This document shows positions 218 to 24,833 of a stretch of 24,833 nucleotides of DNA, piece after piece (the stretch's first letter is position 1; each line of letters starts with the position of its first letter). The stretch comes from Baffinella frigidus (Eukaryota; Cryptophyceae; Cryptomonadales; Baffinellaceae). Under the pieces are notes generated by a model. It had not been told where the DNA came from. It worked only from the letters and a program-made list of their open reading frames with translations, and did not search any database. Position numbers and translations under genes: made by a program. The stretch is taken from the NCBI GenBank assembly GCA_026770585.1, contig MU646334.1, forward strand, positions 395,125 through 419,957, written 5' to 3'.

Positions 218-3200
218 CTGCTCTCCGGCTAAACCCTAAACCCTAAACACTAAAACCTAAACCTTCCGGGGGAAGGGGGCGCCGTTTTTAGAGCACGCGA
301 GCCGGGAAGGAGCAGAGTGTCGGTCCCTAGGCTGCACGGTTGTTCCTCTTCTTTGATGCGTCCAGGTCAACTCTAGTGAGGGGGACCTTATTCAAGCGAT
401 CGGCGGGGACGGGGGAGTTTTTTGGGGGGTTTGGGTCCTAGGCGGCTAGGCGACACGGCCTTCGCGCAAGGGGATACATGGTGGTTGTGGTGGTTGTGGT
501 GGGTTCGGTCCGGAATGAACGCACGTTTCCCTCAGCGTGAAGTAGTCGGCGGGGGCGAGGGGAGGTGCATACACGCCGACCGTGTTGGTCGCAATAACGG
601 TCTCACTCTCTCGGAGGGAGTCTCACTCGGAGAGACGGGAGGGGGGTGATGAGATTTGTAGGCAATTTTACCCTTCAGAGGTCCTAGGCAGGTCCTAGGG
701 CCCTACGGTAGGGCGTATGAGCCACTTAAGGGATACATAAAGGTCTCTCTCTGAGAGATCTCTGGGATAGATGGGATGGGGGGGATGCCTGCTTGAAGAG
801 TTCGGTGGGTTTGATGATGCCGGAGGACTCGATGGTATAGATGAAGTGGTCCTTCTTGCGCGCCAGCCGAATCTGGAGAGCGGTGTGAAGAGATGTTGGT
901 CGCAGAAATGGAAATTGGTTGCAGAAATAGTGAAAATTGGTAGCAGAAATAGAGGGAAAATGGTAGAAATTGGTCGCAGAAATAGTGGAAACATGGTTGA
1001 AGTTGATGGTACAAATTTTCTTGCGTGCCAGCCGCACCTATCAGGGAGCGGTCGCAAGAGAGAGTGAGACCTTCGTTACTCCGAAGGACCACTTCATCTG
1101 AGACTTTTCGAGAGCGGTGTGCAGAAAAGTTGGCCGGATAAATAATGGAAACATGGTAATAGTCGATGGTACACAATTATGAACTTTTACCATTATTGCA
1201 TTATCTTCGCGGCCAACTTTTGTGGACAGTACTCTACCAGGAAAAGTTGGAGAAGAGAGAGAGTTGGGTGTGTGTGTGTGGGGGGGGGGGGGGGCTGGAG
1301 AGGGAGGGTGACTTTTTTTAAATGTATTTGGTTTTCTTTTCACATTTGCTTCGAGAAGGGATGGGAAACTGTGAAATCGCCCCCAGGGGAGGGTGTCGAG
1401 GAAGAAGCATCTTGGACTTCAAGGTGCAGGGTTTAAGGTGTAGGGTTGCACCTGGGGCGCGACACCTTGAACCCGTGCACCCTACACCCTGCACTCTGCC
1501 CCTTCACCCTACACCCTTCATCCTACACCCTTCACCCTGCACCCTACACCCTACACCCTACACCCTGCACCCTTCACCCTACACCCTACACCCTACACCC
1601 TACGACTTACACCCTACACCCTACATCCTACGACACTAGGAGGACTCGAAGGAAGAAGGACCTGGGGCGCGAGGTCTTCGTCCCGGATGCACTCTCGGCA
1701 CAGCGTGCAGTCCCGCTCCTAGTGGGGGATGAGGGTTTAGGGTTTAGGGTTTAGGGTTTAGGGTTTAGGGTTTAGGGTTTAGGGTTTAGGGTGTCGGGTT
1801 TGGGGTTTGGGATTTCGGGTTTCGGGTTTGGGATTTCGGGTTTCGAGTTTCGGGTTTCAGGTTTCGGGTTTTAGGGTTTGGGGTTTAAGGTCCAGGGTTT
1901 AGGGTCCAGGGTTTCGGGTTTCGGGTTTCGGGTTTCGGGTTTCGGGTTTCGGGGTTCGGGGTGTGGGTTTAGGGTGTAGGGCTTGAAAGTGGGAGCGGGA
2001 CCCGTTCCAAGACGATCGCACGGACCATAACAGAATCGTACCCGGTTTTCAGGCTTTTACTTTATCGAGTTGGATGGGAGGTGCACAACATTTTAAGTTT
2101 GATGGGAGGTGCACAACAAGTTTGATGGGAGGTTCACAACCCAAGTTTGATGGGTGGTGCACAACAACGTCGGGCGGGGGCGGGACCCGTTCCGAGACGA
2201 TCGCGCGGCGGCTCCCCCCCGCCAAGTCCTCGATGTCGAAGCAGCTTATCGGACACTGCGCACACGTTTTTGCCAAAGTCAACACTCTTCAACTTAAAGA
2301 CATAGCGTTGCTTAGTGCCTGCGCCCGACGTGCCCTGGGAGCCCAACACCTCGTCACTGGACCGGGCGGGGAGTGCCACGCTGATCTTTCCTGTCAAGTG
2401 TATTATATGGTACCACGATGGTAACCTGTACGCTGGGAAAGCTGCGCGCCAGGAAACCCTCTGATCCGAACAGCGCAAACCAACGTTGTCCATCCGTCCG
2501 TCCAAACTGGACTGCCCTTGAAAATTCGCCACCACCATTTCTGGGTAATGATAAGTCAAGCGCGGGCGGAGGAAGGGGGGGGGGGGTGTTGAACCTTGGC
2601 GACGAGGGTGTCGGCTCGTCAAGCACGTCCCCCAAGATGTCTCGGATCGGGTCCCGCGCCACTCGAGACTATTGCATCGATGACTCACATCCAGGATTGA
2701 TAGTACTGAAGAAGAAGGTATGGAAAATGCACTGCAGGCCAGGATTTCTTTGCTCACGTCAACCCCCCCTTGAAACTGACCTCTTTAAAATCACGAACAC
2801 CACAGTGGCGTCCTTTTCACTACACCTCTTTCCAGTTTTTTTCAAAGTTGACTAATACAAAATGTTCTGGCTAGCAGTGACACGGTGGCGAGGGTACCTT
2901 GACGACGAGGGAGGGAGGATTGGCATTGATTGGATGGGCATTGATACCTTGGCGACGAGGGTGTCAGCACGCTCTGTCAGCACGCTGTCAGCACACCTGT
3001 CACGCGCGGTACGTAGGAGGATGGGATTGGCATTGGTACCTTGGCGACGAGGTTGTCGGCGCGCTCGTCGAGCACGTCTCCCAGGATGTCGATCCGCGGG
3101 AGCAGCCGGTACCTGCACCAGGGAAACCAAATTTAAAATGCTATCTCAGCGTCGACATAGCTTTACCATAGCACACAATTCAACCTCACGTTTACAAAGA

Positions 3201-3389
3201 GGTGATTTGAATTGAATCCCAATTTAGGGACGGCAGTGTACCACGCGGTGGCGACGGGCGACCACTTGGCGTGCCCGCGGTCTCCGAAGTTGTTCTCTCT
3301 CTGTCTCCCTCTTTGTATATCACTCTGTCTCTCTCCCTCTCCCTTTCTCTCTCCCCTATCTCTCTCTCTCTCTCGCGCGCGCGCTCTCG

Positions 3390-3449
<60 letters not shown>

Positions 3450-6400
3450 CGCTCTCTCTCTCGCTCTCTCTCTTTCTCTCTCTCTCTCGCGCGCGCGCTC
3501 TCTCTCTCGATCTCTCGCGCTCTCTCTCTCTCGCGCGCGCGCTCTCTCTCTCTCGCTCGCTCGCTCTCTCTGTCTCGCTCTCTCGCGCGGGGTCTCTCTC
3601 GGGAGGAGACGGTACCACGCAGTGGCGACGGGCGACCACTTAGCGTGCCCGCGGTCTCCGAAGTTGTTCCCCTTCACGCAGTGCATCTCAATGTCGATCT
3701 CCTGCAAGGGGGGATGCGAGGTTTCATAAATGGTCAAACATGACCGCGACAAGCCAGAAGACACGGTGGGATGCCACGGCACCGGCAAGCTTGAGAGCAA
3801 TCAAGAAAAAGAAAGAAGGACAGGCAAGCGCTGTTTGTTCGTGGAGGGGGGGGGTGCGTTTATGAAAAAGACGCGCTGAGAATGGATTCGCAGTAGGGCC
3901 GAACCTATAGCTCTGTCCCAGTCGATTCGGTCTCACCAATGTGGTGAAAGCAGCCCCCCCCCCCAAAAATGACGGATTGCCACCACAACCCCCACACGTC
4001 AACTTACGCATAGTCCGCGAGCCAAACCGAGATTTCGGCAGAGGCAGGAACGCTAGCTCTGCCTCTAGCTCTGCCTCAGTTAATCCTGGGTCCTCTACAT
4101 AGATCAGGACTCCGTTCAAACGTTTCACTACAAAGTTATAGATGAATCAAATAAGGAACCTACATGGACTGAGGCAGAGATAGGAAGAACATGTCCAGGG
4201 CGAAGGCGTGCGACAAGGATGTCGGAGTGGACAGGCTCGGCCCAAAAGTTGACGGATTGGTACTACACACCCAGCACGTCAACTTACGAATAGTCCGCGA
4301 GCCAAACCGAGACTTCGGCAGAGCTACGACGAACCTGCCCCGGGCGAAGGCGAGCCACGAGAATGTCGGAGTGGACAGGCTCGGGGCGGTCCGACGCGAA
4401 ACGCTATCCGCGGTTAATGGGGGCACTACAACGCTATCCGCGGTTAATGGGGGCACTACAACGCTATCCGCGGTTAATGGGGGTACACGAACCTGTCCCG
4501 GGCGAAGGCGAGCGACGAGAATGTCGGAGTGGACAGGTTCGGGGCGGTCCGACGCGAAATCCTCCTCCTGCTTCCCGAAGGGCAGCCACTGCAGCTGCGA
4601 AGAGAACACCTGCGCGCGAGAAACCCCAACTCGCTTGAGCACCTCAGGCTGCATCGCTGCCGGTGAAGCGGTTCCATCCACCAACCCTCACGGGAGGACC
4701 AAATCGTTAATTTTAAGACCTGGTATTTACCCGGCTGAGGGGTCAGATCTGGCCCCTCTGTCAAAGGAAAGCGGCTCCAAAAACGCGTCGATTTGGTCCG
4801 ATTGTGAGGGTTGGTGGATCCATGCCCGCCCTCCAGGAGGCTCCGGGCACAACGCCGCGCCTCCACAACCTCACAACCTCCTGCTTCCCTCACGGGTTCC
4901 AGAGCTGCTTTGACGAAAACGCCTGCGGAAGCCGCCGCTTTTCGAGCGCCGGTTTGGTCGTTCTGTCCGGCCACACGTCGTGTGGCGTGTCAAGTGCACG
5001 TTGGGGGCGTTGCAGCAAAGGGCGGCAGGGGGTGGGGCCGCGTCTTCCCGTTGATTGGTTGAACCATAACCTGATAGCTCCGGCGGCTGATATAACAACA
5101 CCAATGTGGTTTTCGGCGTGTCGAGGCATGCGGCGGGGGGGGGGGGGGCACAGGGGGGTTAGGGTTTAGGGTTTATAGTTGAGTGTCCAGGGTTTAGGGT
5201 TTACCTTTCCGTTGATTGGTTCCTGGTTCGCGTCCCCACCAGGGGCCTTCTTGCACTTGACCTGTGTTGAGGGTTTATGGTTTATGGTTTAGGGTTTAGG
5301 GGTTGGGGTGTGGGGATTGGGGTTTGCGGTTTAGGGTTCAGGGTTTCGGGTGTAGGGTTTAGGGTTTAGGGTTTAGGGTTTAGGGTTTAGGGTTTAGGGT
5401 TTAGGTTATAGGGTTTAGGGTTTAGGGTTTAGGGTTTAGGGTTTAGGGTTTAGGGTTTAGGGTTTAGGGTTTAGGGTTTAGGGTTTAGGGTTTGGGCTAT
5501 GAGGTTTAGTTTCTGGGTCTGGGGTTTAGGAATCCACGGGCGCGGGGGTCAGCTCCCTCCCATTCCGCGCTCTGCATAATGTTGGCAATTGCCAAGTAGG
5601 CTGACTTTACAAAAAACCCAGACGGTCGTTGCCAGCACGGTGTTCGTTTGCGGCACGTGGGGGTTGGGAGGTTGGGTGGCTTGGAAACGAAGGGAGAGGG
5701 GGGGGGGCGGGAGAGACAAAGAGAGAGAGAGAGAGAGACAGGGACAAGGACAGGGTCAGAGAAACATAGACAGCGAGACAGCGAAACAGAAAGGGGGTCG
5801 GGGGGGTAGGGGGTGCGTGCCTGGAGTTTGAACTTGATCACCTCCTTCTCGCTGACGGGCCCCGTGCTATCCACCGCCTTCGTCTCTGCGGGGTTCGGGT
5901 TTGGGGTTGAGGGTGTAGGGTTTAGGGTTTGGAGTTTAGGGTTTGGGGTTTGGGGTTTGGTGTTTGGGGTGTAGGGTTTGGGGTTTAGGGTTTAGTGTGT
6001 AGGGGTTCGGGTTTTGGGTTTTAGGTTGAGGGTTTATGGTTTAGAGTTTAGAATTTAAGGTTCAGGGGGCGCGGACAGGGGGAGGGCCAGTCGAACTTTT
6101 CAGGGTTGATTTGATCGGCGTCAGGCCTCATCCTCATCATTAGGGTTGAAGGCTCAGGGTTGAGAATTGAGGGGTCCACTTAGCAGCCACCGTGGACCTT
6201 TCCCCCCGGATTTCCGGGGGAATTTTGGGTCGCAATCCACAGCAATGGACAAGATTTGTACCCGAATCGTTTAGATGGACTATTTGAGTCACTGATGGCG
6301 TTTAGATGGACTATTTGAGTCACCACGGGGAGGGGGCGCAGACCGGGGGACGGCCAGTCGAACTTTTCGGGGTCGATTTTGATCGGGATCAGGCCCAGGC

Positions 6401-8727: not shown

Positions 8728-9999
8728 CTGCTCACCACCGCCGCCGCGTTCACGCACGCCCGTGGCAGGGGAACAGAGAGCTGTCCCTCTTGACGCGTCC
8801 CCCGCCGGGTGCCTCGCGGAAAGGGAAAGGGCATATAGGAGAGGTCCAGAGTAAAGGAGATCGTCCCGCAGCGAGACGCTTGGGATTATTTGCACTGCTC
8901 CTCGACCAAGGTCCCCAGCGAGGGGGTCGTTGCAGGCGTAAGAGCGGGGTGGTCGCGCACGAGTGCCAAGTAGCGAGGCCTCGCGGGGCCGAGGTCCCGG
9001 CTTGGCTCGGGCGGGGGGCGTACTGTAGGTGGTGGTGTGGGTCGGAGACGCTCCATGGCAGGTGGCGTACTCCTTGATAAACCTGCCCCGTGCCAAACCG
9101 CAGTCAATACGCACGGCCCCACACATACTGAGATTGCATACACCACGATTGCACGGCCCAGGCCTCTACAGCATCCCCTCGTTCTATGCGGTCCCACCCC
9201 CCGGGACCGGGACCATACTTGAGGTTCGCGTTCGCCATGGTTCACTGATTGGACACTTCAGTGAGCGCAGCGAGAGAGGGGAGCTCTGACGATCCAGCCC
9301 ACCGCTGAGCACGTGAAATTCAATTCAAACCAAATTGATTTGTCAACTTTTGAAAGTGGACGATTCAAGTTTGATCAAACTTGCATCGTTCAAACCGCTC
9401 GCAAACCGCGTGCTCGTTCGTGGCAAAGCGCTTCCTTCTCTCACAACACCCCTTAACAGCGCGAACAGAGAAGCAGCAGAGAACTTGGTGTGCAGTTTCC
9501 TCACGATGCCGGCGCCAGCTGACTTCACGGCACACTCGCTCCAAAGTGAACTATTGCCAAGCGGGATGGGCGTCAGAGAGCTCGACAACATGCTCAAGGC
9601 GGTGGGCTGCCCAAGACCCCCCACCCCTTCTACCCCAGACACACCTCGAAGGTCGCCGGCGTTCGTCTCGTTGGCGGCGCTGGGTTGTCTTGCTGTGAGA
9701 GTGATGTGGAACGATTCACATTTCAAAATTGAGAGTTCGCAAGTTGGAAGTCCTTGGGGTGCGCTGTGGTTTCAATGTTGGGAGTTGGGTCGGGCATCAC
9801 TGAGAGCATCCATGCCCGTGGCGATGTTCTACCGGTGTAAGCGTACCCCAACATGAAGGCCAGAGGATCTGACGTCCGCTTGCGTTTCTCCCGCGCTTAA
9901 AAACTGCCCATCCTGACGAAGGGACTCACGGCACCCGCCGGCTGAGCGGGCGCGAGCATGGTGCAGCGCAGGCCCTGACGTTCTGGCGTGTGTGTGCAG
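8728..9999. promoter_or_regulatory. Putative divergent promoter region between POLR1C and SPAG1
   Basis: No exon of either gene could be confirmed here and no telomere-like array occurs. POLR1C's first exon must lie here: a Met in ACCATGG context is at 9238 (minus), another at 9055 (minus). Open frames exist on both strands (for example 9335-9856 plus, 173 codons) but none shows a recognised family. The core-promoter location is inference from the divergent layout. Confidence 0.4.
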
Positions 10000-10047
10000 T
10001 CCGAAATGGAAGAGGTCATGGTCGAGGAGCGGCGCAAGGAGCGCCTG
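10000..10047 (+). CDS. SPAG1: SPAG1 N-terminal exon (possible start)
   Basis: Acceptor TGTGTGCAG and donor GTGACC; 16 codons, phase 0, reading SEMEEVMVEERRKERL. Charged and joins in phase to the next exon. The Met at 10006 could be the start if CAG is not an acceptor. The region across its donor is repeated about 100 bp downstream (10136-10250), as for other exons of this gene, which supports it being a real exon. Family identity cannot be told from this piece. Confidence 0.55.
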
Positions 10048-18081: not shown

Positions 18082-18113
<32 letters not shown>

Positions 18114-18272
18114 CTATGCATATCTTTTTATCTCTCTCTCTATCTCTCTCACACACACACTCGGAGACGGATGATGATGACGAGGAGGATGAGAAGGGGG
18201 TGATGGAAGCCGTGGCGATGCTGGCGGTGCGTTCCTTCTCGCCCGAATCCCACTCATTCATCTCCTTTCTCG

Positions 18273-18303
<31 letters not shown>

Positions 18304-21300
18304 ATTCTTTCTCGCTCTCTCTCTCTCTCTCTCTCTCTCGGAGACGGATGATGATGACGAGAAAGATGGTGAGGAGGGGGGGATGGATTCCGTGGCGATG
18401 CTGGCGGTCCGTGCCTTCTCTCTCTCCCTCCCTCTCTCTATATATCTCTCTCGCTCAAACACACAGACACACACTTTCTCTCTCTCTCTCGCCATGCCAG
18501 CCCCCTCCCCCTTCTGTAAATCTCCCCCCCTTTCTCATATCTCTCTCATATGTCTCACTATATCTCCGGCTGTGTCTATCTCTCACACATCCTTTTGTTA
18601 CCACGTTTCCAACCTCACGCCCCACCCACCGCAGCTCAACAGCCCATGACCCCCGCTCACCTGATCCATTTTATTGGGTACACATCAAATCACGAAATAG
18701 TGGGGGTTTCACAGAGCGGAATCCAGCCGAGGGTTGACCCCCCACGCACACACCCGCCGAGCAGGTCGAGGGTTCGAATCCCTGAACCCTAAACCCTAAA
18801 CCATAAACCATAAACCCTAAATCCTAAACCCTAAATCCTAAACCCTAACCCCTCAACCCCAAACACCAAACACCACACCCCAAACCACAAACCCCACACC
18901 CCCGCACAGGCCAAAGAATCCCTCCGCAAGAAGCAGGACAACAAATCGGACCCTGCGCCCTCAACCCTAAGCCCCAAGCCCCACACCCCAAACCCCAAAC
19001 CCCAAACCCCTAACCCTGAAACCCGCGCGTCCAGGCAGAAGAATCGCTCCGCCTGAAACAAGACAACGAATCCGACCCTAAACCCTCAGCCCCACACCCC
19101 AAACCCTAAACCCGAGACCCGAAACCCCCAAACAACAAACACCAAACAACAAACACCAAACACCAAACACCAAACACCAAATACCAAACACCAAACACCA
19201 ACCCCCCTCACAGGCGAAAGAATCGCTCCGCAAGAAGCAGGACAACGAATCCGACGCCAAGGAGTCCTCGCGCCTCAAGGCCGAGAAGGAGGGGGAACTC
19301 CTCCGTCTCGGGTACACCCTAAACCCTGAACGTTGAGGGTGTAGAGTGTAGGACCTACACCCTACACCCTACACCCTACACCCTACACCCTACACTCTAC
19401 ACCCTACACCTCAAACCGAGGAGTCATCACGCCTCAAGGCCGAGAAGGAAGGGGGGCTCCTCCGCCTCGGGTACCCCCTGAACCCTACCCCTCAAGTGGC
19501 CAGGGGGTATTAAAAGACCCACGCCAGGTACCCGAAACCCTACACTCTACACCCTTAACCTCACGCCTCAAGGCCGGAAAGAAGGGGGAGCTCCTCCGCC
19601 TCGGGTTCCCCCTGAACCCTACACTTTACACTCTACACCCTACACTCTACACCCTACACCCTACACTCTACACCCTACACCCTACACCCTACACTATACA
19701 TCCTACACCCTACACTCTACACCCTACACTCTACACCCTACACCCTACACCCCACACCCTGCACCCTACACCCTGCACCCTACACCCTACACCCTAAAAC
19801 CTAAACCCCAAACCCCAAACCCTCAACCAGGGCGGCGCGCGCTGAGAAGGCCAAGGGCAACGACGCCTTCAAGGCCAACGACCTCCCGGGTACCTCCCAA
19901 TTCACCCTGTACATATTCATCTATTAAATACCGTAAAGATTTATTAAATAAATAAATAGATGAATATTTACGGTTCAGGTTGAGTTTGATTTTTAAAAAA
20001 TAACCTCAACCTTCTGTGACGTTTTGCAGGGGCGCTGCTCCACTACACGCGCGCTATGGCCGCGCTTCCCGACGGCGACAAGGAGGAGGTTCCACCCCAA
20101 ACTCTCAACCCTAAACTCCAAACCCTAAACCCCAAACCCTAAACCCTAATCCCAAATCCCCAACCCCTAACCCCTACGCCCTAAACCATGAACCCTAAAC
20201 CCCACACCCTAAACCATAAACCATAAACCATAAACCATAGAACATAACCCCCAATCCACAATCCCTCATCCATCATCCCCAATCCCTGATCCCTGATCCC
20301 TAATCCACAAACCATCAACCAGGCGCACCTTATCCTTTCCAACCGCGCCATGGTGCACCTGAAAGCCAAGAGCTTCCTCCTCGCGGAATCCGACTCCTCC
20401 GCGGTCAACCCCTACTCCCTAAACCCCGAAACCCGAAACCCTCAAACCCGAAACCCGAAACCCGAAAACCCGAAAACCCGAAACCCGAAAACCCGAAACC
20501 CGAAACCCGAAACCCGAAACCCGAGACCCTGAACCGATGACCCTAACCCACAACCCCAACCCCAAATCCGAAACCCTCAACCTCAAACCCTATCCCAGGC
20601 GATTGCGGCGAACGGCAAGTGGGGGAAGGCGTACCACAGGCGGGGCGGTGTGCCCCTGATTAAATTTACTTAGGGCCCTAATTAAATTTACTTAGGGCCC
20701 TTCGTCCAACTCCTATGAACAAATAGGGATTCGTTTTCTTTTGAATTAAACATGTCCCCGGATTAAACCCCACACCCTTTCCCAGGCGATTGCGGCGAAC
20801 GGCAAGTGGGGGAAGGCGTACCACCGGCGGGGCGTGGCGCGCTACAACCTCGGACGGCTCGAGGAGGCGTTGGTTGATCTCGAATCCGCGCTGAAGATGG
20901 AGCCGGGGAGCAACGCGACCATCGATGAGATCCGGAATGTGCGGCAGCTTCAGACTGCGAAGCGCCGCGCGAACGGGGAGGCGGAGCCTTCCCCTGCCAA
21001 ACCGGTCAAACCTGTCAAGGGGGGGACGGACGCCGGGAAGATGGGCGGGTTCAAGTTCGGGGCCGGGAAGGCCGGGAAGGGTGGGGCGGCGGCGGCGGCG
21101 GCGGACGCACCGTTGAAGAAGTGCTTTATTGAGGAGATCGACTCCGACGAGGAGGACGAGGACGAGGAGGTCGTGATGGTGTCGCGCCCTTACACCAGAA
21201 ACACGAAACACGAAACCCGAAACCCGAAACCCTAATCCCTGAACCATAAACTCTAAACCCTAAACTCTAAACCCTAAACCCTAAACCCTAAACCCTAAAC

Positions 21301-23273
21301 CCTGAACCCTGAACCCTAAACCCTCATCCCTAAACCCTCATCCCTAAACCCTAAACCCTAAACCCTAAACCCTAAACCCTAAACCCTAAACCCTCACCCC
21401 TAAAGGTGTCGCGCCCCGACGCGCCTTCGCCCGCCGCCGGGAAGCGGGTCGCGGTGGTGGAGGAGAGCGAGAGCGAGGGGGAGATCATCGATGACGAAGA
21501 GGTCAACCCCGAACCCCTCGAAACCCTTGAATCGGGGGAAACGCGAGGTTTGTTGAGTTGATACACATCGGCGTCCTAGCGGGTCGCGTCCTAACGTGGT
21601 GGAGGAGAGCGAGAGCGAGGGGGGGGTCATCGATGACGAGGAGGTGGACCCCGAACCCCTCGAAATCCTCGAAGCGGGGGGGAAGTGAGGTTGATTAAGT
21701 TGATGGGGAAACGTGGGGAAACGCGAGGTTTGTCGAGTTGATACACATCGGCGACACGCTAGGGGGGGAGACGCGACATGCCACCTAGTTCCGGAGGTTT
21801 GGGGTGTAGGGTTCCGGATGGTTCCGGAGGGTAGCGCGTTAATCCCTAAACCCTAAACCCTCGTTATCTCCACAACCCTAAACCCTAAGGTTGGGCGTTA
21901 ATATCTCAACCCTCAACCTCAAGCCCTAATCCCTGAACCTCAAGGTGGTGGCGGTTGGCGGCTCCGTCAAGCCTGCGGGGAACACCGCGCCGGTGAAGGT
22001 GAACAAGATCGTGATCGAGGAGGAGAGCGATGATAGCGACTCCGACGCGGACACCCCGCCGGCTGCGAACAAACCTGCAAACAAACCTGCGAACATGGCC
22101 GCGGATGACGCTGCGAACAAAGACGCTGCGAACAAGTCTGCGAACAAAGATGCGAACAAAGCGGCGAAGAAGCCGGCGAGCCCCGGCACGAACCGCGTGC
22201 CGGTGATGGAGGTGGACTCCGACGAGAGCAGCGGGGAGGACGCCGCTGCACCCGAGCACCTCCCCCCCCCCCCCGCTGCGCCTCCCCCCCATGCGCCTCC
22301 CGCGAGTGCGGCAGGCGCGGCGCCCGAGGTGGAGAGCGAGATGGGGAGCGAGGCGGTGGTGGTGGCGGCGTGGGACGCGGCGGGGCGTGACGCGGGGGTG
22401 CTGGGGGAGGCGCGGGGGGTGAAGGAGGCGGCGGACGTGCAGTTTAAGGCGGGGTTGCATGAGATCGCTGCGGAGGGGTACTTTACCCCTACAACCTAAA
22501 CTATGAACCCTAAACGCTACCCCCTGACCCCTGCAAATCCTACACTCTACACCCTAAACGCTAAACCCTAAACCCCAAACCTCAAAACCAAAACCCAAAG
22601 CCCAAACCTCAAACCCCAAACCCCAAATCCCACACCCCAAACCCTAAACCCTGAACCCTAAACCCTGAACCCTAAACCATAAACCCCCTAGGTACACAAA
22701 GCCGGTGCTGCTCCTGGAGGCTGAGGAGTACTTATAGGCACACTGTTTATTTTGGAAGCATTGTGCGTCAATGAAAATTACTTCACATTTGCTTGAATAG
22801 TGAATTCCATTGCAGATTTTTTTTTAAATAAAACAGATTGCCAAACCCCAAACCCCACACAAGGTACTCGGAGGCAGTGCTGCTCCTGGAGGCAGAGGAG
22901 TATGAGGCGGAGCCGATTGTTTCTAATCTCTTGCAAAGAGATCAGGTTATCTTTTGGGACGTCACGAGAGTTGAGAGGGGTGTAACGGGAGGCTAAAAGT
23001 TTCGTCCGCTCGTTTCCAAACTAGGTACTCGGAGGCGGTGCTGCTCCTGGAGGCGGAGGAGTATGAGGCGGAGCGGATGCTTTGCTTCCTCAACCGCGCC
23101 GCGTGCCGCCTGCAGATCCGCGACTTCAAGGCCGTCATCGCCGACTGTTCCGAGGTGTACACCCTACGCCTTGCATCGTAAACCGAGAGAGAGAGAGACA
23201 GACAGAAAGAAACAGAGAGTTTGTGCGTGAGAGAGAGAGAGAGAGGGGGAAAGAGACAGAACGGAAGACAGGG

Positions 23274-23311
<38 letters not shown>

Positions 23312-23622
23312 GCGCGGCGTGAGGCGGAGGAGTATGAGGCGGAGCGGATGGTGTGCTTCCTCAACCGCGCCGCGTGCCGCCTGCAGATCCGCGACTTCAA
23401 GGCGGTTATCGCGGATTGCTCCGAGGTGGCCCTACACCGTAAAGCTTAAACCGAGAAGGAAATAGAGTGTGAGAGTGAGAGAGTGTGTGTGAGGGAGAGA
23501 GAGAGACAGAGAAAGAAAGAGCGAAAGGGAGAGAACCGCAGTTCCTTCGCCTTGCAGCGTAAACCGAAAGAAAGAGAGAGAGAGTGTGTGTGTGAGAGAG
23601 AGAGAGAGAGAAGAGAGGGAGG

Positions 23623-23656
<34 letters not shown>

Positions 23657-24833
23657 AGAGAGGGAGGGAGGGAGGGAGAGAGAGAGAGACGCGCGGCGTG
23701 CCGGCTGCAGATCCGCGATTTCAAGGTTGTTATCGCCGATTGCACTGAGGTCTAGATTCTGCACCCCAAAACCCTGAACCGCAAACCATGGATTCGACCC
23801 CTGAACCCTGAACCCTGGGACCTTAAAGAGACACAGACACAGACACAGACACAGACACAGACACAGACACAGACACAGACAGACCATAATACAGACCAGA
23901 CAGACAGGGAAATAGAGAGACGTTCATTACTACAATCACCCGCCATGTGAACCCGTGATTCAACCCCTGAGCCCGGAAGCCTGAACTATGACCCCTGATC
24001 CCTCAACTCTGGACTGTACGTCAGGTGCTGTTCGTGGACGAGGACAACGTCAAGTCTCTCATGCTTCTTCTTCCTCTTCTTTATTCCCCTCTTAAAGTCC
24101 TGTATACAGGCCCTAACCAAGTGAAAAGTGACCAACACACCAACCTAGTGAAAGGTGGTCAACTTACTAACCACGCGCGCACCCCATGTACTTTTGTATC
24201 ACCTGTATCGAGAGTAATAATAATAAAGAAGAAGAAGAAGAAGAAGAAGAAGAAGAAGAAGAAGAAGATCTGACCCATGAACCTAACACAGGTGTTGTTC
24301 GTGGACGAGGACAACGTCAAGGCCCTGGTCCGCCGCGGGATGGCCTTCGAGGGGCTGGAGCGCTTTGAAAAGGCCGCTGAGGTCAACCCTGAACCCTGAA
24401 CCATAAACTCTGTCACGTAACCCCTAACCCATAACCCATATCCCCTGAACCCTAACCCCTGAACCCTCAACTCTATCACGAAACCCCTAACCCCTAACCC
24501 CTAACCCCTATCCCCTGAACCCTAACCCCTGAATCCCACAACCTTAACCCTACATCTTAAACCTCACACCCTCCCCCGCTCGAGTTTGCATCCGGGGGCC
24601 TATCACCCCTCGAGACCAAAGGACGCGACTGAACCCCCACACCCCAACCCCAGGACATGATAAACGCCATGTCCCTCGAGTTCTCGCCTCCGGGGGCCTC
24701 TCAGCCCTCTGGACCCTAACTGCCAAACCATACGCCCCACACCCTAAATCCTGCACTCCAAACCGCAGGACATGAGAAACGCCATGGCGCTCGAATTCGC
24801 AGCCGGGGGGCTGTCAACGCTCGGGACCAAGGC
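10000..24833 (+). CDS. SPAG1: SPAG1-type TPR co-chaperone, dynein axonemal assembly factor (split gene, 3' truncated by window)
   Basis: Nineteen exon segments with matching phases give about 850 codons, running off the window; human SPAG1 is about 926. Order: acidic/charged N-terminus, LSDFLADINDKD helix, MPPVRN (LPPVR/LPPIR in SPAG1 and RPAP3), the signature YFKEWDTFDVDKE (EWDKFDVEKE in SPAG1), then three TPR cassettes starting at REKEKGNECM, AEKAKGNDAF and AADVQFKAGL. Acidic linkers follow with the recurring pattern K-x-x-I-x-E-acidic (KIMIQETDDDDE, KKCFIEEIDSDEED, KIVIEEESDDSDS). Known SPAG1 acts in the cytoplasm with HSP70/HSP90 and R2TP-like complexes to pre-assemble ciliary dynein arms. 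RPAP3 is the alternative, but it has two TPR cassettes and a different linker signature. The first coding exon is not certain. Confidence 0.87.
10136..10250 (+). repeat. Donor-side copy of the first SPAG1 exon region
   Basis: GGCGCTCTGGGTGACC repeats GAGCGCCTGGTGACC of the exon end at 10047. The following intron (CACCCCAAGTTCC...CCTTTGTAC...GCGCAGTTTTCTCTCCC) is copied too, with a period of about 100 bp. Confidence 0.8.
10620..10669 (+). repeat. Acceptor-side copy of the SPAG1 LSDF exon
   Basis: The 5' 50 bases of the exon at 10758 with acceptor, three or four changes, then unrelated sequence. A second fragment of the same exon (internal 38 bases) is at 11131-11168. Confidence 0.9.
10758..10865 (+). 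CDS. SPAG1: SPAG1 exon: LSDFLADINDKD helix
   Basis: 36 codons, phase 0, acceptor ACACCAG, donor GTACCA. Contains AGEIFDDQKAGSDEP then LSDFLADINDKDAQLR, resembling the L-x-D-F-(M/L)-x-D-(L/I) helix before the LPPIR/LPPVR motif in RPAP3 and SPAG1. An acceptor-side copy lies at 10620-10669 and an internal copy at 11131-11168. Confidence 0.8.
10888..10989. repeat. Hairpin just after a SPAG1 exon
   Basis: Nested stem: GGAGCAAATC/GATTTGCTCC outside, CCCTTGATTT/AAATCAAGGG in the middle, and GTCGTCGGAATCCGACGAC at the tip. It begins 22 bases after the donor of the exon ending 10865. Foldback insertion or structured intron segment. Confidence 0.7.
11443..11850 (+). repeat. Tandem acceptor-side copies of the SPAG1 MPPVRN exon
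   Basis: CAGGTCGAGCGCGTSGTCCC followed by GGGAGC occurs at 11441, 11700, 11819 and then 11937 (real exon), with a degenerate one at 11310. The last three have a period of about 120 bp and share the upstream intron (CTCTCGCACCTCCAAGCACT, GACCAGTTTGACCAGTTTG). Confidence 0.93.
11499..11633. repeat. Inverted repeat in SPAG1 intron
   Basis: Inner arms 11527-11552 and 11568-11593 match 25 of 26 around a short loop. The outer arms (CCACCAGCCACCAGAAGTGA and its near-complement ending 11633) extend the stem with a 12-base bulge on the right arm. Confidence 0.75.
11940..12068 (+). CDS. SPAG1: SPAG1 exon: MPPVRN motif
   Basis: 43 codons, phase 0, acceptor CCCCAG, donor GTGCGC. Reads VERVVPGSKMPPVRNARPVR, then a Lys/Glu-rich helix RVEEAKEAAKLAKEGK. 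MPPVRN matches the LPPVR/LPPIRN of SPAG1 and RPAP3. This is the last of four or five tandem copies of its 5' edge and the first of two or three copies of its 3' edge. Confidence 0.85.
12166..12240 (+). repeat. Donor-side copy of the SPAG1 MPPVRN exon
   Basis: CAGACAGGCAAGAGCCGGGT and CGAGGAGG repeat 12007-12034, then a frameshifted tail GAAGGAGGGGAAGGTG carrying the donor. A third, intron-only copy starts near 12395. Confidence 0.88.
12437..12560 (+). repeat. Dispersed palindromic repeat family, copy 3
   Basis: GAGCTCTGTCTCAGTCTATT, TGGGCTCACCAATTTGG, then ATTTGTACCGCACACACTG and GTTAACTTGAGAAAAGTCGG. It lies downstream of a third donor-side echo of the SPAG1 MPPVRN exon, so the repeat was duplicated along with the exon edge at 12068. 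Confidence 0.6.
12950..13095. repeat. Tandem repeat of 22-bp units
   Basis: About six units of GTGGTCAACCNTAGNTGAAA, alternating with GTGGTCAGCCGTAG, in a SPAG1 intron. No coding sense recognised. Confidence 0.85.
13245..13800 (+). repeat. Telomere-like arrays flanking the EWDTFDVDKE exon
   Basis: Degenerate units at 13245-13345, the exon, then CCCGAAA units from 13468, CCCTAAA, and a CCATAAA block at 13690-13750. Sense C-rich. Confidence 0.88.
13360..13452 (+). CDS. SPAG1: SPAG1 exon: EWDTFDVDKE signature
   Basis: 31 codons, phase 0, acceptor GAAGCAG, donor GTACTT. Reads DPSKHQKYYSYEYFKEWDTF followed by DVDKEIERIEK. This is the SPAG1 signature (EWDKFDVEKE...KIDE) that precedes the first TPR cassette and best separates it from RPAP3. 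Heptamer-like arrays flank both sides. No echo copy was found. Confidence 0.92.
13972..14157 (+). other. Unassigned ORF inside a SPAG1 intron
   Basis: 61 codons with balanced composition, unlike the surrounding arrays, ending in TGA. The central part EEKAKDEFKTFSKKAVDYG and DEVGFAPLLNNPTSD look protein-like. It does not join in phase with GT/AG sites I can defend and is not part of the SPAG1 domain order. It could be a fragment of a captured gene or element; no family recognised. Confidence 0.3.
14620..14769. repeat. Perfect 54-bp inverted repeat including a SPAG1 exon edge
   Basis: Arms 14620-14673 and 14716-14769 are exactly complementary over 54 bases with a 42-base pyrimidine-rich spacer. 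The right arm contains the acceptor and first 44 coding bases of the exon starting at 14726. Confidence 0.95.
14726..14827 (+). CDS. SPAG1: SPAG1 exon: start of TPR cassette 1, GC donor
   Basis: 34 codons, phase 0, acceptor AAAGCAG, donor AAG|GCAACT (a GC donor, needed to join KGNECMK to AGEIN). Reads VHDPNKTYSIEMMSALEKRH then AAKREKEKGNECMK; REKEKGNE is the standard opening of SPAG1 TPR cassette 1. Its first 44 coding bases and acceptor lie in the right arm of a perfect inverted repeat (14620-14673/14716-14769). Confidence 0.92.
14830..15075 (+). repeat. Telomere-like array (CCCCAAA, CCCGAAA)
   Basis: Starts two or three bases after the GC donor at 14828 and ends at the CACGCAG acceptor of the first AGEIN copy; the intron is array throughout. 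Confidence 0.9.
15077..15251 (+). repeat. Two acceptor-side copies of the SPAG1 AGEIN exon
   Basis: At 15077 the copy matches the first 60 bases of the exon nearly perfectly. The one at 15208 is more diverged (GCGGGAGAGATCAGCGCTGC). Both lose similarity before the NRAQ part. Confidence 0.93.
15330..15419 (+). CDS. SPAG1: SPAG1 exon: TPR1 helix pair
   Basis: 30 codons, phase 0, acceptor GGCGCAG, donor GTGCCC. Reads AGEINAAVAYYTKALEL then VPGDHLVLGNRAQ, matching the G-x-Y-x-x-A-x-x-Y-Y-T and NRA positions of a TPR. It is the third and only complete copy; earlier ones at 15077 and 15208 lack the VLGNRAQ end. A donor-side scrap is at 15662. Confidence 0.9.
15826..16037. repeat. Imperfect foldback element of about 210 bp
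   Basis: The left end AGTATTGTCGAAATGGGCTC with CGCGCGG...ATCGAGGTCAG is inverted at the right end (CTGACCTCGATTCCGCGCGA, then AGCCCAGATCGACAATACC). The centre is AT-rich, with runs of T and a second inner pairing. MITE-like, in the SPAG1 intron between the exons at 15330 and 16428. Confidence 0.7.
16428..16519 (+). CDS. SPAG1: SPAG1 exon: TPR1 second repeat
   Basis: 92 nt, acceptor GCGGCAG, donor GTACCC; 30 codons plus two bases. Reads AYIGIRCYYQSEVDCDKALA then IDPAYFKARY, fitting the ...A-x-x-D-C-x-x-A-L-x-L-D-P-x-x-x-K-A-x-x-R pattern of SPAG1. Four donor-side copies follow over the next 470 bp. Confidence 0.9.
16600..16990 (+). repeat. Four donor-side copies of the SPAG1 FKARY exon
   Basis: CTTCAAGGCCCGCTACC and preceding GCCCTCGCGATCGACCC recur at about 16600, 16665, 16852 and 16964, separated by AG or C runs and TGTGTGTGAATGTTGTGTAT. 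The 16665 and 16852 copies share 25 bases upstream. Confidence 0.93.
17164..17230 (+). repeat. Acceptor-side copy of the SPAG1 AVAKKEQHKYG exon
   Basis: GCGCGCCGTCGCGAAGAAAG through GAGGATCTGACCGAG, about 60 bases with six changes, acceptor CAG kept, then cut by a dispersed repeat end. Confidence 0.93.
17228..17335 (-). repeat. Two end fragments of the dispersed repeat
   Basis: CTCGGGTTGACGGACTATTT followed by AAGTTGACACGCTG, then CTCGGCTTGACGGACTATTC followed by AAAGTTAACATGCTG: two direct copies about 65 bases apart, between the two copies of a SPAG1 TPR exon edge. Confidence 0.55.
17372..17537 (+). CDS. SPAG1: SPAG1 exon: TPR1 third repeat and Lys/Glu helix
   Basis: One base finishes the split Arg, then 55 codons: RAVAKKEQHKYGESLEDLTE, LLRTNPEHTLGVKLLQEVE and a Lys-rich tail. 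It matches RRATTY...ATEDLSKVL...A-K-K-x-L-x-E-V-E of SPAG1. The donor is GAG|GTCAAC, and the heptamer array starts within a few bases. An acceptor-side copy is at 17164-17230. Confidence 0.93.
17540..17930 (+). repeat. Telomere-like array with several homogeneous variant blocks
   Basis: Successive blocks of CACTAAA, CCATAAA, CCATACA and finally CCCTAAA fill the intron between the exons ending 17537 and starting 17933. All keep the seven-base period. Confidence 0.92.
17933..18052 (+). CDS. SPAG1: SPAG1 exon: first acidic linker
   Basis: 40 codons, phase 0, acceptor ACACCAG, donor GTGCGT. Reads ESDRTQYENAPRRKIMIQE, then a run of Asp/Glu and GGMDSVAMLA. The RRKIMIQE-acidic pattern follows TPR cassettes in SPAG1. 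Two copies of the acidic end plus donor follow at about 175-bp spacing. Confidence 0.85.
18162..18412 (+). repeat. Two donor-side copies of the SPAG1 acidic exon
   Basis: GAGACGGATGATGATGA to GCGATGCTGGCGGT at 17987, 18164 and 18340, with intron start CCTTCTCGCCCGAATC and CT repeats included. Spacing is about 177 bases. Confidence 0.95.
18781..19213 (+). repeat. Telomere-like arrays between echo copies of a linker exon
   Basis: CCCTAAA, CCCCAAA and CACCAAA/CAACAAA blocks alternate with two truncated acceptor-side copies (18911 and 19037) of the exon at 19214. Confidence 0.9.
18911..19077 (+). repeat. Two acceptor-side copies of a SPAG1 linker exon
   Basis: AAAGAATCCCTCCGCAAGAA and GCAGGACAAC at 18911, and a more diverged copy at 19037, both ending in TCGGACCC or TCCGACCC where the true exon reads TCCGACGCC. 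Confidence 0.92.
19214..19311 (+). CDS. SPAG1: SPAG1 exon: charged linker before TPR2
   Basis: 98 nt, acceptor CTCACAG, donor GTACAC; 32 codons plus two bases. Reads AKESLRKKQDNESDAKESSR then LKAEKEGELLRL. Linker sequence, not conserved enough for family assignment alone, but phase and echo copies on both sides (two acceptor-side, two donor-side) mark it as an exon. Confidence 0.8.
19421..19608 (+). repeat. Two donor-side copies of a SPAG1 linker exon
   Basis: CGCCTCAAGGCCGAGAAGGA and CTCCTCCGCCTCGGGTAC or GGTTC at 19430 and 19562 copy the 3' edge at 19271-19313, the donor included. Confidence 0.92.
19488..19520. mobile_element. Foldback element end fragment
   Basis: CCCCTCAAGTGGCCAGGGGG followed by TATTAAAAGACCC resembles the first 30 bases of the foldback element. 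It lies right after a truncated copy of a SPAG1 linker exon. Confidence 0.45.
19831..19889 (+). CDS. SPAG1: SPAG1 exon: start of TPR cassette 2
   Basis: 59 nt, acceptor CAACCAG, donor GTACCT. After the split Gly, reads AARAEKAKGNDAFKANDLP, the opening K-x-x-GN-x-x-F-x-x-x-x-(F/Y) of a TPR cassette. The acceptor side is a CCCTACA/CCCCAAA array. Confidence 0.88.
19910..20018. repeat. Nested hairpins filling a 140-nt intron
   Basis: TATTCATCTATTAAATA pairs with AAATAAATAGATGAATA, CCGTAAA with TTTACGG, and AGGTTGAG with CTCAACCT further on. AT-rich, unlike the neighbouring array introns. The intron is bounded by exons ending 19889 and starting 20030. Confidence 0.6.
20030..20088 (+). CDS. SPAG1: SPAG1 exon: TPR2 continued
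   Basis: 59 nt, acceptor TTTTGCAG, donor GTTCCA. Completes Gly then reads ALLHYTRAMAALPDGDKEE, matching A-x-x-x-Y-(S/T)-x-A-(I/M) of SPAG1's second cassette. The preceding 140-nt intron (19890-20029) has no telomere-like array; it is AT-rich with nested hairpins and a good pyrimidine-rich 3' end. Confidence 0.9.
20090..20598 (+). repeat. Heptamer arrays on both sides of the SNRA exon
   Basis: CCCTAAA, CCATAAA and CCCTGAT units before the exon at 20323; a nearly pure CCCGAAA block at 20425-20522 after it. Confidence 0.9.
20323..20403 (+). CDS. SPAG1: SPAG1 exon: TPR2 SNRA helix
   Basis: 27 codons, phase 0, acceptor CAACCAG, donor GTCAAC. Reads AHLILSNRAMVHLKAKSF then LLAESDSSA; SNRA is the TPR hallmark. 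Both neighbouring introns are almost wholly heptamer array, and the downstream one is nearly pure CCCGAAA. Confidence 0.9.
20599..20647 (+). repeat. Acceptor-side copy of the SPAG1 KAYHRRG exon
   Basis: CAGGCGATTGCGGCGAACGG, CAAGTGGGGGAAGGCGTACC, CAGGCGGGGCG: 49 bases with a single change before divergence. A 22-bp tandem duplication (ATTAAATTTACTTAGGGCCC) follows. Confidence 0.95.
20786..21178 (+). CDS. SPAG1: SPAG1 exon: end of TPR2 and acidic linker
   Basis: 131 codons, phase 0, acceptor TCCCAG, donor GTGTCG. Reads AIAANGKWGKAYHRRGVARY, NLGRLEEALVDLESALKMEP, then a low-complexity Gly/Ala/Lys linker and KKCFIEEIDSDEEDEDEE. KAYHRRG with the DLxxxLKMEP helix is typical of cassette ends. The acceptor-side copy is at 20599-20647. 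The donor and next acceptor are followed by the same 11 bases. Confidence 0.92.
21205..21405 (+). repeat. CCCTAAA array in a 227-nt intron
   Basis: Nearly pure CCCTAAA array that ends at CTAAAG, so the acceptor AG is itself formed at the array edge. The intron is flanked by a 12-base direct repeat. Confidence 0.92.
21406..21501 (+). CDS. SPAG1: SPAG1 exon: acidic linker
   Basis: 32 codons, phase 0, acceptor CTAAAG, donor GTCAAC. Reads VSRPDAPSPAAGKRVAVVEE then SESEGEIIDDEE. Linker-type sequence. A donor-side copy, including about 90 bp of the following intron, lies at 21594-21780. Confidence 0.75.
21594..21780 (+). repeat. Donor-side copy of the SPAG1 SESEGE exon with intron
   Basis: GTGGTGGAGGAGAGCGAGAG and ATCGATGACGA(G/A)GAGGT recur, followed by the copied intron start (GAACCCCTCGAA...) and GGGGAAACGCGAGGTTTGT, GAGTTGATACACATCGGCG. 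Confidence 0.93.
21845..21944 (+). repeat. Short CCCTAAA array before the long linker exon
   Basis: Degenerate units CCCTAAA, CCCTCAA and CCCTGAA ending in CTCAAG, the acceptor. Only part of this intron is array; the rest is the copied edge of the preceding exon. Confidence 0.8.
21945..22477 (+). CDS. SPAG1: SPAG1 exon: long linker leading into TPR cassette 3
   Basis: 533 nt, acceptor CTCAAG, donor GTACTT. Begins VVAVGGSVKPAG, then KIVIEEESDDSDSD, a degenerate Ala-Asn-Lys repeat (AANKPANKPAN...), a second acidic patch MEVDSDESSGED, a Pro/Ala-rich stretch, and ends VKEAADVQFKAGLHEIAAEG, which opens TPR cassette 3. Low-complexity composition fits a disordered linker. It could be read as a separate ORF, but the phase joins on both sides. 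Confidence 0.85.
22490..22692 (+). repeat. Telomere-like array before TPR3
   Basis: CCCTAAA, CCCCAAA and CCCTGAA units from about 12 bases after the donor at 22478 to the first echo of the next exon at 22693. Confidence 0.88.
22693..22922 (+). repeat. Two acceptor-side copies of the SPAG1 TPR3 exon
   Basis: GGTACACAAAGCCGGTGCTG at 22691 and GGTACTCGGAGGCAGTGCTG at 22863, each followed by CTCCTGGAGGC(T/A)GAGGAGTA, then unrelated AT-rich sequence. Confidence 0.95.
23025..23154 (+). CDS. SPAG1: SPAG1 exon: TPR cassette 3 core
   Basis: 130 nt, acceptor ACTAG, donor GTGTAC. Completes Gly then reads YSEAVLLLEAEEYEAERMLC and FLNRAACRLQIRDFKAVIAD, CSE; NRAACRL and A-x-x-DC are TPR hallmarks. This is the only copy with both edges intact among five. 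Confidence 0.92.
23176..23310. repeat. AG microsatellites between exon copies
   Basis: AG and AGAC runs separate the real TPR3 exon from its first donor-side copy. Similar runs occur at 23460-23690 and an ACACAG run at 23826-23883. Confidence 0.92.
23322..23749 (+). repeat. Two donor-side copies of the SPAG1 TPR3 exon
   Basis: 23322-23425 repeats 104 bases to the GAG|GT donor with few changes; 23689-23749 repeats the last 60 bases. Each copy includes intron material (GCCTTGCANCGTAAACCGA and AG runs). Confidence 0.95.
24025..24054 (+). repeat. Acceptor-side copy of the SPAG1 LFVDEDN exon
   Basis: CAGGTGCTGTTCGTGGACGA and GGACAACGTCAAG, one change from the exon at 24292, then cut to TCTCTCATGC. 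Confidence 0.95.
24216..24268. repeat. AAT/GAA trinucleotide run
   Basis: About 14 GAA units, immediately upstream of the CACAG acceptor of the exon at 24292. A purine run here is unusual, because acceptors normally have pyrimidines upstream. Confidence 0.95.
24292..24381 (+). CDS. SPAG1: SPAG1 exon: TPR3 continued
   Basis: 30 codons, phase 0, acceptor ACACAG, donor GTCAAC. Reads VLFVDEDNVKALVRRGMAFE then GLERFEKAAE, matching D-x-x-N-V-K-A-(L/F)-x-R-R-x-x-A of SPAG1. An acceptor-side copy (ten to twelve codons) sits at 24025, before a long GAA run. Confidence 0.92.
24384..24560 (+). repeat. CCCTGAA/CCCCTAA array
   Basis: Begins inside the donor sequence GTCAACCCTGAACC of the exon ending 24381. 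CCCTGAA and CCCCTAA variants in blocks. Confidence 0.88.
24578..24716 (+). repeat. Two copies of the SPAG1 AMALEF exon
   Basis: 24654-24716 repeats GACATGATAAACGCCATG through CTGGACC with acceptor CCCCAG. 24578-24620 repeats only CTCGAGTTTGCATCCGGGGG and CTATCACCCCTCGAGACCAA. Confidence 0.92.
24769..24833 (+). CDS. SPAG1: SPAG1 exon, cut by the window end
   Basis: Acceptor ACCGCAG, phase 0, reading DMRNAMALEFAAGGLST then LGTK at the edge. It continues the last TPR helix. Two earlier copies (24578-24620 and 24654-24716) carry substitutions. Confidence 0.8.

What the first reader, a model, noticed from the sequence alone, without database searches (positions are those of the whole stretch)
789..24833. 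Exon echoes: most exons have truncated same-orientation copies of their own edge
Of about 30 assigned exons, at least 20 have one to four nearby copies of one boundary: exon edge plus splice site plus adjacent intron. The copies lie on the acceptor side (upstream) or donor side (downstream) and stop inside the exon. The pattern holds in two unrelated genes on opposite strands, so it is a property of the genome and not of one gene. Exon interiors are rarely copied. Such copies supply ready decoy splice sites. I do not know a described process that duplicates exon-intron junctions this systematically; replication slippage, microhomology repair at R-loops and assembly error are all possible.
Basis: partly seen in the sequence, partly recalled or inferred. 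Interest (0 to 1): 0.9.

Follow-up and report, generated by a model that had tools for sequence, protein, structure and literature searches.

The report
Stray exon edges inside algal introns
In this alga many coding segments have broken, same-direction copies of one of their ends lying in the neighbouring intron, and the copies differ from the real segments the way other working versions of the gene would, which suggests they are scars of recombination rather than simple decayed duplicates.

Summary
The window is from the cryptophyte Baffinella frigidus and carries an RPAC1 gene (minus) and a SPAG1-like TPR gene (plus). A scan of 49 modelled exons, including CCT1 on another contig, gave 40 same-strand copies within 1.5 kb, 2 opposite and 0 in a reversed control. 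Of 34 copies anchored at an edge of a complete exon, 18 are donor edges lying downstream and 16 acceptor edges lying upstream. Matched non-exonic segments are copied less often (14 of 98 against 21 of 49) and equally on both strands. In RPAC1 and CCT1 the few amino-acid changes do not avoid conserved residues. So the copies look like edges of other, diverged working versions of these exons that later decayed. I favour scars of exon-anchored recombination between very different alleles. The published assembly is Illumina AllPathsLG; an assembly artefact stays open.

The parts
789..8727 (-). RPAC1 (POLR1C/AC40) gene part modelled: exons 8727-8636, 7340-7248, 6452-6344, 5885-5821, 5261-5205, 4609-4493, 3701-3616, 3112-3040, 2255-2187, 1718-1662, 872-789
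9506..24833 (+). SPAG1-like TPR gene, 21 exons modelled: 9506-9601, 10000-10047, 10758-10865, 11940-12068, 13360-13452, 14053-14115, 14726-14827, 15330-15419, 16428-16519, 17372-17537, 17933-18052, 19214-19311, 19831-19889, 20030-20088, 20323-20403, 20786-21178, 21406-21501, 21945-22477, 23025-23154, 24292-24381, 24769-24833 (cut by window end)
2002..2023 (-). donor-edge echo of exon 2187-2255
2595..2641 (-). donor-edge echo of exon 3040-3112 (4-nt gap)
2948..2984 (-). donor-edge echo of exon 3040-3112
3242..3295 (-). donor-edge echo of exon 3616-3701, S 2 N 0
4192..4240 (-). donor-edge echo of exon 4493-4609, S 5 N 0
4335..4401 (-). donor-edge echo of exon 4493-4609, S 3 N 0
6078..6127 (-). 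donor-edge echo of exon 6344-6452
6547..6579 (-). acceptor-edge echo of exon 6344-6452
7645..7689 (-). acceptor-edge echo of exon 7248-7340
10620..10663 (+). acceptor-edge echo of exon 10758-10865
11131..11168 (+). identical copy of positions 48-85 of exon 10758-10865 (scored interior)
11445..11481 (+). acceptor-edge echo of exon 11940-12068
11702..11729 (+). acceptor-edge echo of exon 11940-12068, within a 119-nt tandem unit
11821..11848 (+). acceptor-edge echo of exon 11940-12068, within a 119-nt tandem unit
12161..12239 (+). donor-edge echo of exon 11940-12068
14617..14663 (-). inverted copy (98%) of the first 47 nt of exon 14726-14827; the clear exception in orientation
15076..15126 (+). 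acceptor-edge echo of exon 15330-15419, S 4 N 0
15210..15252 (+). acceptor-edge echo of exon 15330-15419
15662..15678 (+). donor-side echo of exon 15330-15419 (17 nt, weak)
16569..16615 (+). donor-edge echo of exon 16428-16519
16666..16703 (+). donor-side echo of exon 16428-16519 (stops 6 nt short, scored interior)
16853..16896 (+). donor-edge echo of exon 16428-16519
16957..16986 (+). donor-edge echo of exon 16428-16519
17164..17229 (+). acceptor-edge echo of exon 17372-17537
18163..18226 (+). donor-edge echo of exon 17933-18052
18340..18406 (+). donor-edge echo of exon 17933-18052
18910..18951 (+). acceptor-edge echo (exon nt 1-42) of exon 19214-19311
19039..19076 (+). acceptor-edge echo (exon nt 5-42) of exon 19214-19311
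19416..19470 (+). donor-edge echo (exon nt 44-98) of exon 19214-19311
19559..19604 (+). donor-edge echo (exon nt 53-98) of exon 19214-19311
20599..20647 (+). acceptor-edge echo of exon 20786-21178
21578..21643 (+). donor-edge echo of exon 21406-21501; similarity runs about 60 nt into the intron
22692..22730 (+). acceptor-edge echo of exon 23025-23154
22864..22917 (+). acceptor-edge echo of exon 23025-23154 (not in the list)
23321..23425 (+). donor-edge echo (exon nt 26-130) of exon 23025-23154, S 6 N 1
23690..23742 (+). donor-side echo of exon 23025-23154 (stops 7 nt short, scored interior)
24025..24054 (+). acceptor-edge echo of exon 24292-24381
24577..24619 (+). copy of exon 24769-24833 (exon cut by window end)
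24654..24715 (+). acceptor-edge echo of exon 24769-24833 (exon cut by window end)

Best explanation
The echoes are edges of other, diverged working versions (most likely alleles) of the same exons, stranded in the neighbouring intron by imperfect recombination or break repair. Between such versions only exons are alike enough to pair. A break in an exon is extended by copying a homologous version past the exon edge into its intron. There the end finds no partner and is joined to the other broken end. The gene keeps one complete exon, and a truncated exon edge with its splice site is left in the intron. Extension rightwards leaves a donor edge downstream; extension leftwards leaves an acceptor edge upstream. 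Afterwards the stranded edge decays as intron. A variant needs no special template: an ordinary tandem duplication across an exon edge, followed by normal exchange of the exon with other alleles. Shown: copies, sides, truncation inside the exon, synonymous bias, changes at conserved residues. Inferred: the allelic source, the repair route, and that the copies exist in the living genome.
For: Sides: 18 donor/down and 16 acceptor/up, none wrong among edge-anchored copies of complete exons; 40 same strand, 2 opposite, 0 control. Copy versus exon: S 100.5, N 60.5 in 556 codons, dS 0.281, dN 0.051, dN/dS 0.18; dS is 0.28 in each of three genes; observed pN/pS 0.209 against 0.548 for a neutral copy beside a constrained exon (95% 0.41-0.74; 0 of 200 simulations at or below observed). 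Copy versus copy at the same exon, 20 pairs, 232 codons: S 56, N 44, dS 0.389, dN 0.089, ratio 0.23, where two neutral copies should give about 1; copy-copy dS exceeds copy-exon dS (0.268 on the same codons), so a fast-evolving exon cannot explain it. Changes private to one copy: S 33, N 27, against about 74% N expected if neutral (p 1.8e-6). Amino-acid changes do not avoid residues fixed in relatives: RPAC1 plus CCT1 7 of 12 changed codons against 95 of 172 codons overall, so these look like later decay. In most copies the intron flank becomes unlike within about 16 nt, as expected if the source's introns had diverged. Intron-intron repeat pairs show no codon periodicity. A transcript-derived protein matches the CCT1 model 100% without echoes, and RPAC1 P0001 contains none.
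Against: No second version of an exon was found: exon 20786-21178 hits only itself and its echo, and for exon 16428-16519 all other hits lie in the GA-repeat part of the query. This is weak, since 13 of 20 stretches I fetched were withheld throughout and even RNA_pol_Rpb2_6 gives no hit. Only one Baffinella protein is named among the best 120 of 2444 RPAC1 matches and one among 16 TPR matches. Synonymous distances would have to be about 0.2, near or above the most diverse species known (recalled). S counts per copy fit one single rate (chi2 33.8 on 39 df), exponential ages fit worse by 12 log units, and S and N are uncorrelated, which is not the spread expected of allele ages in one mixing population. 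TPR amino-acid changes avoid conserved residues slightly (14 of 44 against 154 of 384). The RPAC1 and CCT1 count of 12 is small. Some echoes arose from one another, so the 40 are not independent.
Confidence: 0.4

Rival explanations
1. Assembly artefact: the culture or strain holds several diverged haplotypes, and a short-read assembly strung exon-edge fragments of the others into the introns of the main one (false duplications).
For: The published assembly is Illumina AllPathsLG, no long reads mentioned in the passages seen (PMC9756366). Coding-like differences between copies and exons are what foreign haplotype fragments would show. Almost no near-identical repeats: 3 of 63 pairs in the window at 97% or more.
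Against: It is not shown that G000 is that assembly: G000 has 382 Mb in 1364 contigs and its C32 is 1,289,341 long, against 534.5 Mb, 10,880 scaffolds and a 1,304,910 contig for P0001. The window has no N through 38 echoes. Several exons have two to four same-side copies that on average differ from one another at least as much as from the exon, so more than two haplotypes would be needed. Mid-exon junctions of 35 window copies are not at simple repeats more than chance (0.25 masked against 0.32). In the three introns that have both kinds (16520-17371, 18053-19213, 23155-24291) donor copies come first and acceptor copies last, the reverse of a bubble laid out in line. The transcript-derived CCT1 protein equals the main exons.
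Confidence: 0.22
2. Ordinary in-place tandem or template-switch duplications that cross an exon edge, filtered by selection: duplications inside exons are lost, those crossing an edge are harmless because splicing can skip the extra copy; all later differences are decay.
For: Explains side rule, orientation and rarity of interior copies. The genome is full of local repeats. One copy pair runs through 60 nt of intron as a whole tandem unit.
Against: Predicts neutral decay: pN/pS 0.55 copy-exon and about 1 copy-copy; observed 0.21 and dN/dS 0.23. Only 10 of 180 repeat pairs are head-to-tail. Intron flanks are unlike even beside several copies 95-98% identical in the exon part.
Confidence: 0.2
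3. The echoes are used as coding sequence (alternative exon parts), so selection keeps their amino acids.
For: dN/dS 0.18-0.23. The public TPR model P0121 takes several echoes in as exons.
Against: Two echoes that P0121 takes in are among the less constrained (18163 and 18340: S 0 and 1, N 5 and 3), while RPAC1 echoes, absent from P0001, are the most constrained (dN/dS 0.111). The transcript-derived CCT1 protein has none. Relatives P0122 and P0124 carry single copies (by eye). Amino-acid changes hit invariant residues in RPAC1 and CCT1. Frame-breaking gaps occur in some copies.
Confidence: 0.1

Closest known systems
Tandem duplication of exon sequence with novel intron positions (Drosophila near intron pairs, PMC2891723, abstract seen)
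   Same: local duplication of coding sequence around a splice site, one copy becoming intronic
   Different: there isolated gains of new intron positions; here many truncated copies beside existing introns, with coding-like divergence
Direct repeats near intron borders (Rogers and Bendich 2025, PMC11782384, abstract seen)
   Same: direct repeats close to splice sites, break repair invoked
   Different: those compare the two borders of one intron, 4-30 bp; here one exon edge is copied into the intron, 17-105 nt
Newly gained introns of Daphnia (PMC4202315, search listing and start of abstract seen; repair model recalled)
   Same: break-repair duplications at introns
   Different: there new introns in exons; here the intron already exists
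One-sided invasion and repair with end joining at gene targeting (recalled)
   Same: one side by homology, other side joined without it, giving a partial duplication
   Different: known from experiments, not as a genome-wide exon pattern
False haplotype duplications in draft assemblies (recalled)
   Same: diverged versions of the same sequence side by side
   Different: usually whole segments beside gaps, not mid-exon-truncated edges in a gap-free stretch
Introners (e.g. Amoebophrya, PMC7789003, search listing seen)
   Same: intron-rich protist gene with unusual introns
   Different: introners are families of similar introns (recalled); echoes are copies of the adjacent exon

Membership tests
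partial tandem duplication | same strand, local, on the side that tandem geometry predicts | tested here: met
   40 same strand, 2 opposite; no wrong-side copy of a complete exon
partial tandem duplication | duplicated unit continues head-to-tail into the intron | tested here: not met
   intron part 2-16 nt in 18 of 21 copies; 10 of 180 repeat pairs head-to-tail; exceptions 21443-21562/21578-21704 and 23050-23255/23321-23521
partial tandem duplication | copy decays neutrally after duplication | tested here: not met
   copy-copy dN/dS 0.23
mutually exclusive or alternative exons | copy is a complete exon with both splice sites | tested here: not met
   copies begin or end inside the exon; by eye no consistent AG or GT at that end
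mutually exclusive or alternative exons | copy appears in mRNA | tested here: inconclusive
   CCT1 transcript-derived protein lacks echoes; TPR model includes some; no reads available
introners | near-identical intron sequence at many loci | not tested
   no intron-wide family search was run
false haplotype duplication | copies are sequences of another haplotype of the same sample | not testable with these tools
   no reads; no second copy found in the part that can be searched
false haplotype duplication | junctions at gaps or unresolved repeats | tested here: not met
   no N in window; junction flanks of 35 copies no more repetitive than chance
allelic recombination scar | copy and exon differ as two functional versions do | tested here: met
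   dN/dS 0.11-0.20 per gene, dS 0.28 in each
allelic recombination scar | alleles that diverged exist in the species | not testable with these tools
   no population data held

The most novel reading that the evidence does not exclude
Introns of this alga are an archive of past exon versions: each echo is the edge of a functional but strongly diverged allele, stranded when recombination anchored in exons failed to find homology in the intron. The genome would then record, beside its own exons, the diversity of a hyperdiverse population, and exon-limited pairing would be a continuing source of intron growth and spare splice sites.
Probability: 0.33. Interest if true: 0.85.

Novelty: new variant of a known kind. 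Interest (0 to 1): 0.62.

Why it matters
If real, it shows a systematic by-product of recombination when introns are too different to pair, gives a source of alternative splice sites and intron growth, and lets allelic history be read from one genome. If it is an assembly artefact, it warns that draft genomes of diverse protists can carry fragments of other haplotypes in introns and that gene models take them in as exons, as the public TPR model does.

Tried and rejected
Fast-evolving exon as cause of the synonymous excess: rejected, because copy-copy dS (0.389) exceeds copy-exon dS (0.268) on the same codons. Two-haplotype bubble laid out in line: predicts acceptor copy before donor copy within an intron; the three introns with both show the reverse order (read from coordinates). 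Homogenising conversion between exon and copy: by reasoning it raises rather than lowers dN/dS. Current translation of echoes: see rivals. A single burst of neutral copies fits uniform S counts (its input was typed with half counts rounded) but not the copy-copy ratio. Scarcity of near-identical copies may itself be an effect of short-read assembly (inference). Relatives in bacterial and archaeal genome contigs and in viral contigs: none confirmed; phage records no match. HSP90 gave 1 match and RNA_pol_Rpb2_6 none, so no further full gene was added; the CCT family search gave 10 matches, of which only the C94 gene was modelled in full. Paper searches in the held open-access library listed no paper that, by title and start of abstract, describes exon-edge copies in introns; two searches showed only 15 of 454 and 12 of 17. 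One search looked for Baffinella. Only PMC9756366 (passages), PMC11782384 and PMC2891723 (abstract and outline) were opened.

Rows left out or added: one search dropped hits under score 34 or of low word diversity; the two copies of exon 17933-18052 and copy 22864 are not in the and 84 counts but are in the count; keep the two copies of the cut exon 24769-24833. An earlier count on 31 copies picked by eye gave S 78, N 48 changed codons and dN/dS 0.17.

Full report
What the window is. A protein joined from eleven minus-strand exons is 100% identical, over the 90% of it that aligns, to a Baffinella frigidus RPAC1 in public records; the window lies at G000:C32:395125-419957. Plus-strand exons code for a SPAG1-like TPR protein, 82% identical by local alignment to record P0121, whose contig has the same length as that of P0001. 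Relatives of RPAC1 in the listing include MMETSP and EukProt transcripts at 66-69% and a JGI contig protein at 82%.

The observation. Self-comparison of the masked window gave 73 local direct repeats against 2 in a reversed-sequence control, and 24 inverted (score 32 or more). By boundary, with the 27 exons modelled first, 18 of 53 exon boundaries had a copy; every donor copy lay downstream and every acceptor copy upstream. With each exon as its own query in three genes (21 TPR, 11 RPAC1, 17 CCT1 exons), 40 same-strand copies appeared: 18 donor/downstream, 16 acceptor/upstream, 4 interior, 2 from an exon cut by the window end; 2 opposite, 0 control; 21 of 49 exons have at least one. Random non-exonic segments of matched length: 14 of 98 with a copy, 23 copies same strand, 22 opposite (tests). 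So exon edges are copied more often and nearly always in one direction. Introns also hold many local repeats, base coverage shows a smaller contrast (0.38 against 0.26), and a copy of a conserved exon stays recognisable longer, so part of the excess may be visibility.

Generality. The CCT1 gene on contig C94 was modelled from seventeen exons; the spliced protein matches a transcript-derived protein (P0137; organism not shown in the listing) at 100% over the query. Four of its exons have five copies: two donor/downstream, two acceptor/upstream, one interior lying upstream. Partial exons at two further loci: one copy in five exons; both loci have minus-strand matches, and by that the copy is a donor edge downstream. 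Repeat density in five other stretches is 1.2-6.7 per kb; by eye, L023 and L027 hold acceptor-like pairs of the same kind.

Anatomy. The copies keep 17-105 nt of exon, the splice site and, in 18 of 21 copies, 2-16 nt of intron; beyond, most flanks are unlike, with exceptions at exons 17933, 19214, 21406 and 23025. They start or stop inside the exon. In some exons upstream and downstream copies are nearly complementary, e.g. exon 19214-19311 with nt 1-42 and 5-42 upstream and 44-98 and 53-98 downstream. Junction flanks of 35 window copies are not richer in simple repeats than random intron (0.25 against 0.32). One copy is inverted, 14617-14663.

The divergence. Copies and exons differ mostly at synonymous sites: 100.5 synonymous and 60.5 nonsynonymous changes in 556 codons, dN/dS 0.18; RPAC1 0.111, TPR 0.202, CCT1 0.186, with dS 0.28 in each. 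If the copy drifted freely and only the exon were constrained, simulation gives pN/pS 0.55 where 0.21 is observed. Two copies of one exon edge, neither of them the exon, still show dN/dS 0.23 with dS 0.389. Mismatches in exon-intron pairs are phased by three (85 of 125 in the best phase, expected 69.3, sd 3.3), those of intron-intron pairs are not (106 of 212, expected 111.6). Gaps are few in exon-intron pairs (3 per 125 mismatches) and commoner in intron-intron pairs (19 per 212). In RPAC1 and CCT1, 7 of 12 amino-acid-changing codons fall on residues invariant in the relatives compared, against 95 of 172 codons overall; in TPR, with two relatives, 14 of 44 against 154 of 384. The simplest reading is two phases: a long one as working coding sequence on a separate line, then a short one as dead intron.

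What that implies. The separate working line is most simply another allele or strain version of the gene. Recombination confined to exons, because introns do not pair, and completed by end joining gives the side rule, the mid-exon ends, the short shared intron part and the coding-like differences together. The same differences would arise if an assembler had spliced in fragments of other haplotypes; the published assembly is Illumina AllPathsLG (passages read), though G000 differs from it in size, contig number and the length of this contig, so that it is the same assembly is inferred. Against the artefact: no N in the window, more than two versions at single exons, and junctions without repeats. 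No second exon copy was found, but 13 of 20 stretches I fetched were withheld throughout, so this decides little.

Against my reading. S counts are as uniform as one fixed age, which ordinary allele coalescence would not give; short-read assembly may remove the youngest copies and detection the oldest (inference). The needed allelic diversity is extreme. Echoes within one exon are partly copies of one another. TPR changes avoid conserved residues slightly.

Known literature. The closest described cases are tandem duplication of coding sequence with intronisation in Drosophila (PMC2891723, abstract), direct repeats at intron borders (PMC11782384, abstract) and new introns in Daphnia (PMC4202315, listing). 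None of the listings shown describes exon-edge copies like these; the library covers open-access papers only and two of the listings were partial.

Noticed in passing
14617-14663 and 14726-14772: The first 47 nt of exon 14726-14827 are present as an inverted copy (98%) about 60 nt upstream, a potential hairpin; it suggests a fold-back template switch.
   Followed up: partly
e.g. 1732-1981, 5266-5493, 6585-6884, 13468-13789, 17541-17924, 19616-19823, 21213-21404: Introns are filled with degenerate plant-type telomere-like heptamer arrays (CCCTAAA and variants) and GA/CT arrays.
   Followed up: no
about 4010, 4300, 7011-7086, 8354-8402, 12277-12354, 17228-17334 and L039 about 880-960: A short interspersed sequence with a core like GGACTATTCTCAAGTTGACATGCTG and an end like GAGGCAGAGCTA recurs in both orientations (partly by eye); perhaps a small mobile element.
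   Followed up: no
14828, 5820, 788 and L039:8140: GC-AG introns; apart from GT or GC, donor sites show little extended consensus by eye, while most acceptors read CAG followed by G.
   Followed up: no
P0121 against 18163-18406, 20599-20649, 22865-22912, 23321-23428, 24025-24054: The public TPR gene model appears to take several echoes in as extra exons, giving tandem partial repeats not seen by eye in relatives P0122 and P0124.
   Followed up: partly
51-97 and 677-723; similar in L027:1858-1918 and L013:8009-8142: An inverted pair (98%) of a motif containing CCCTACGGTAGGGCGTATGAGCCTACTCGCCACTTAAGGGAT; similar sequence appears in other contigs, perhaps termini of a mobile element.
   Followed up: no
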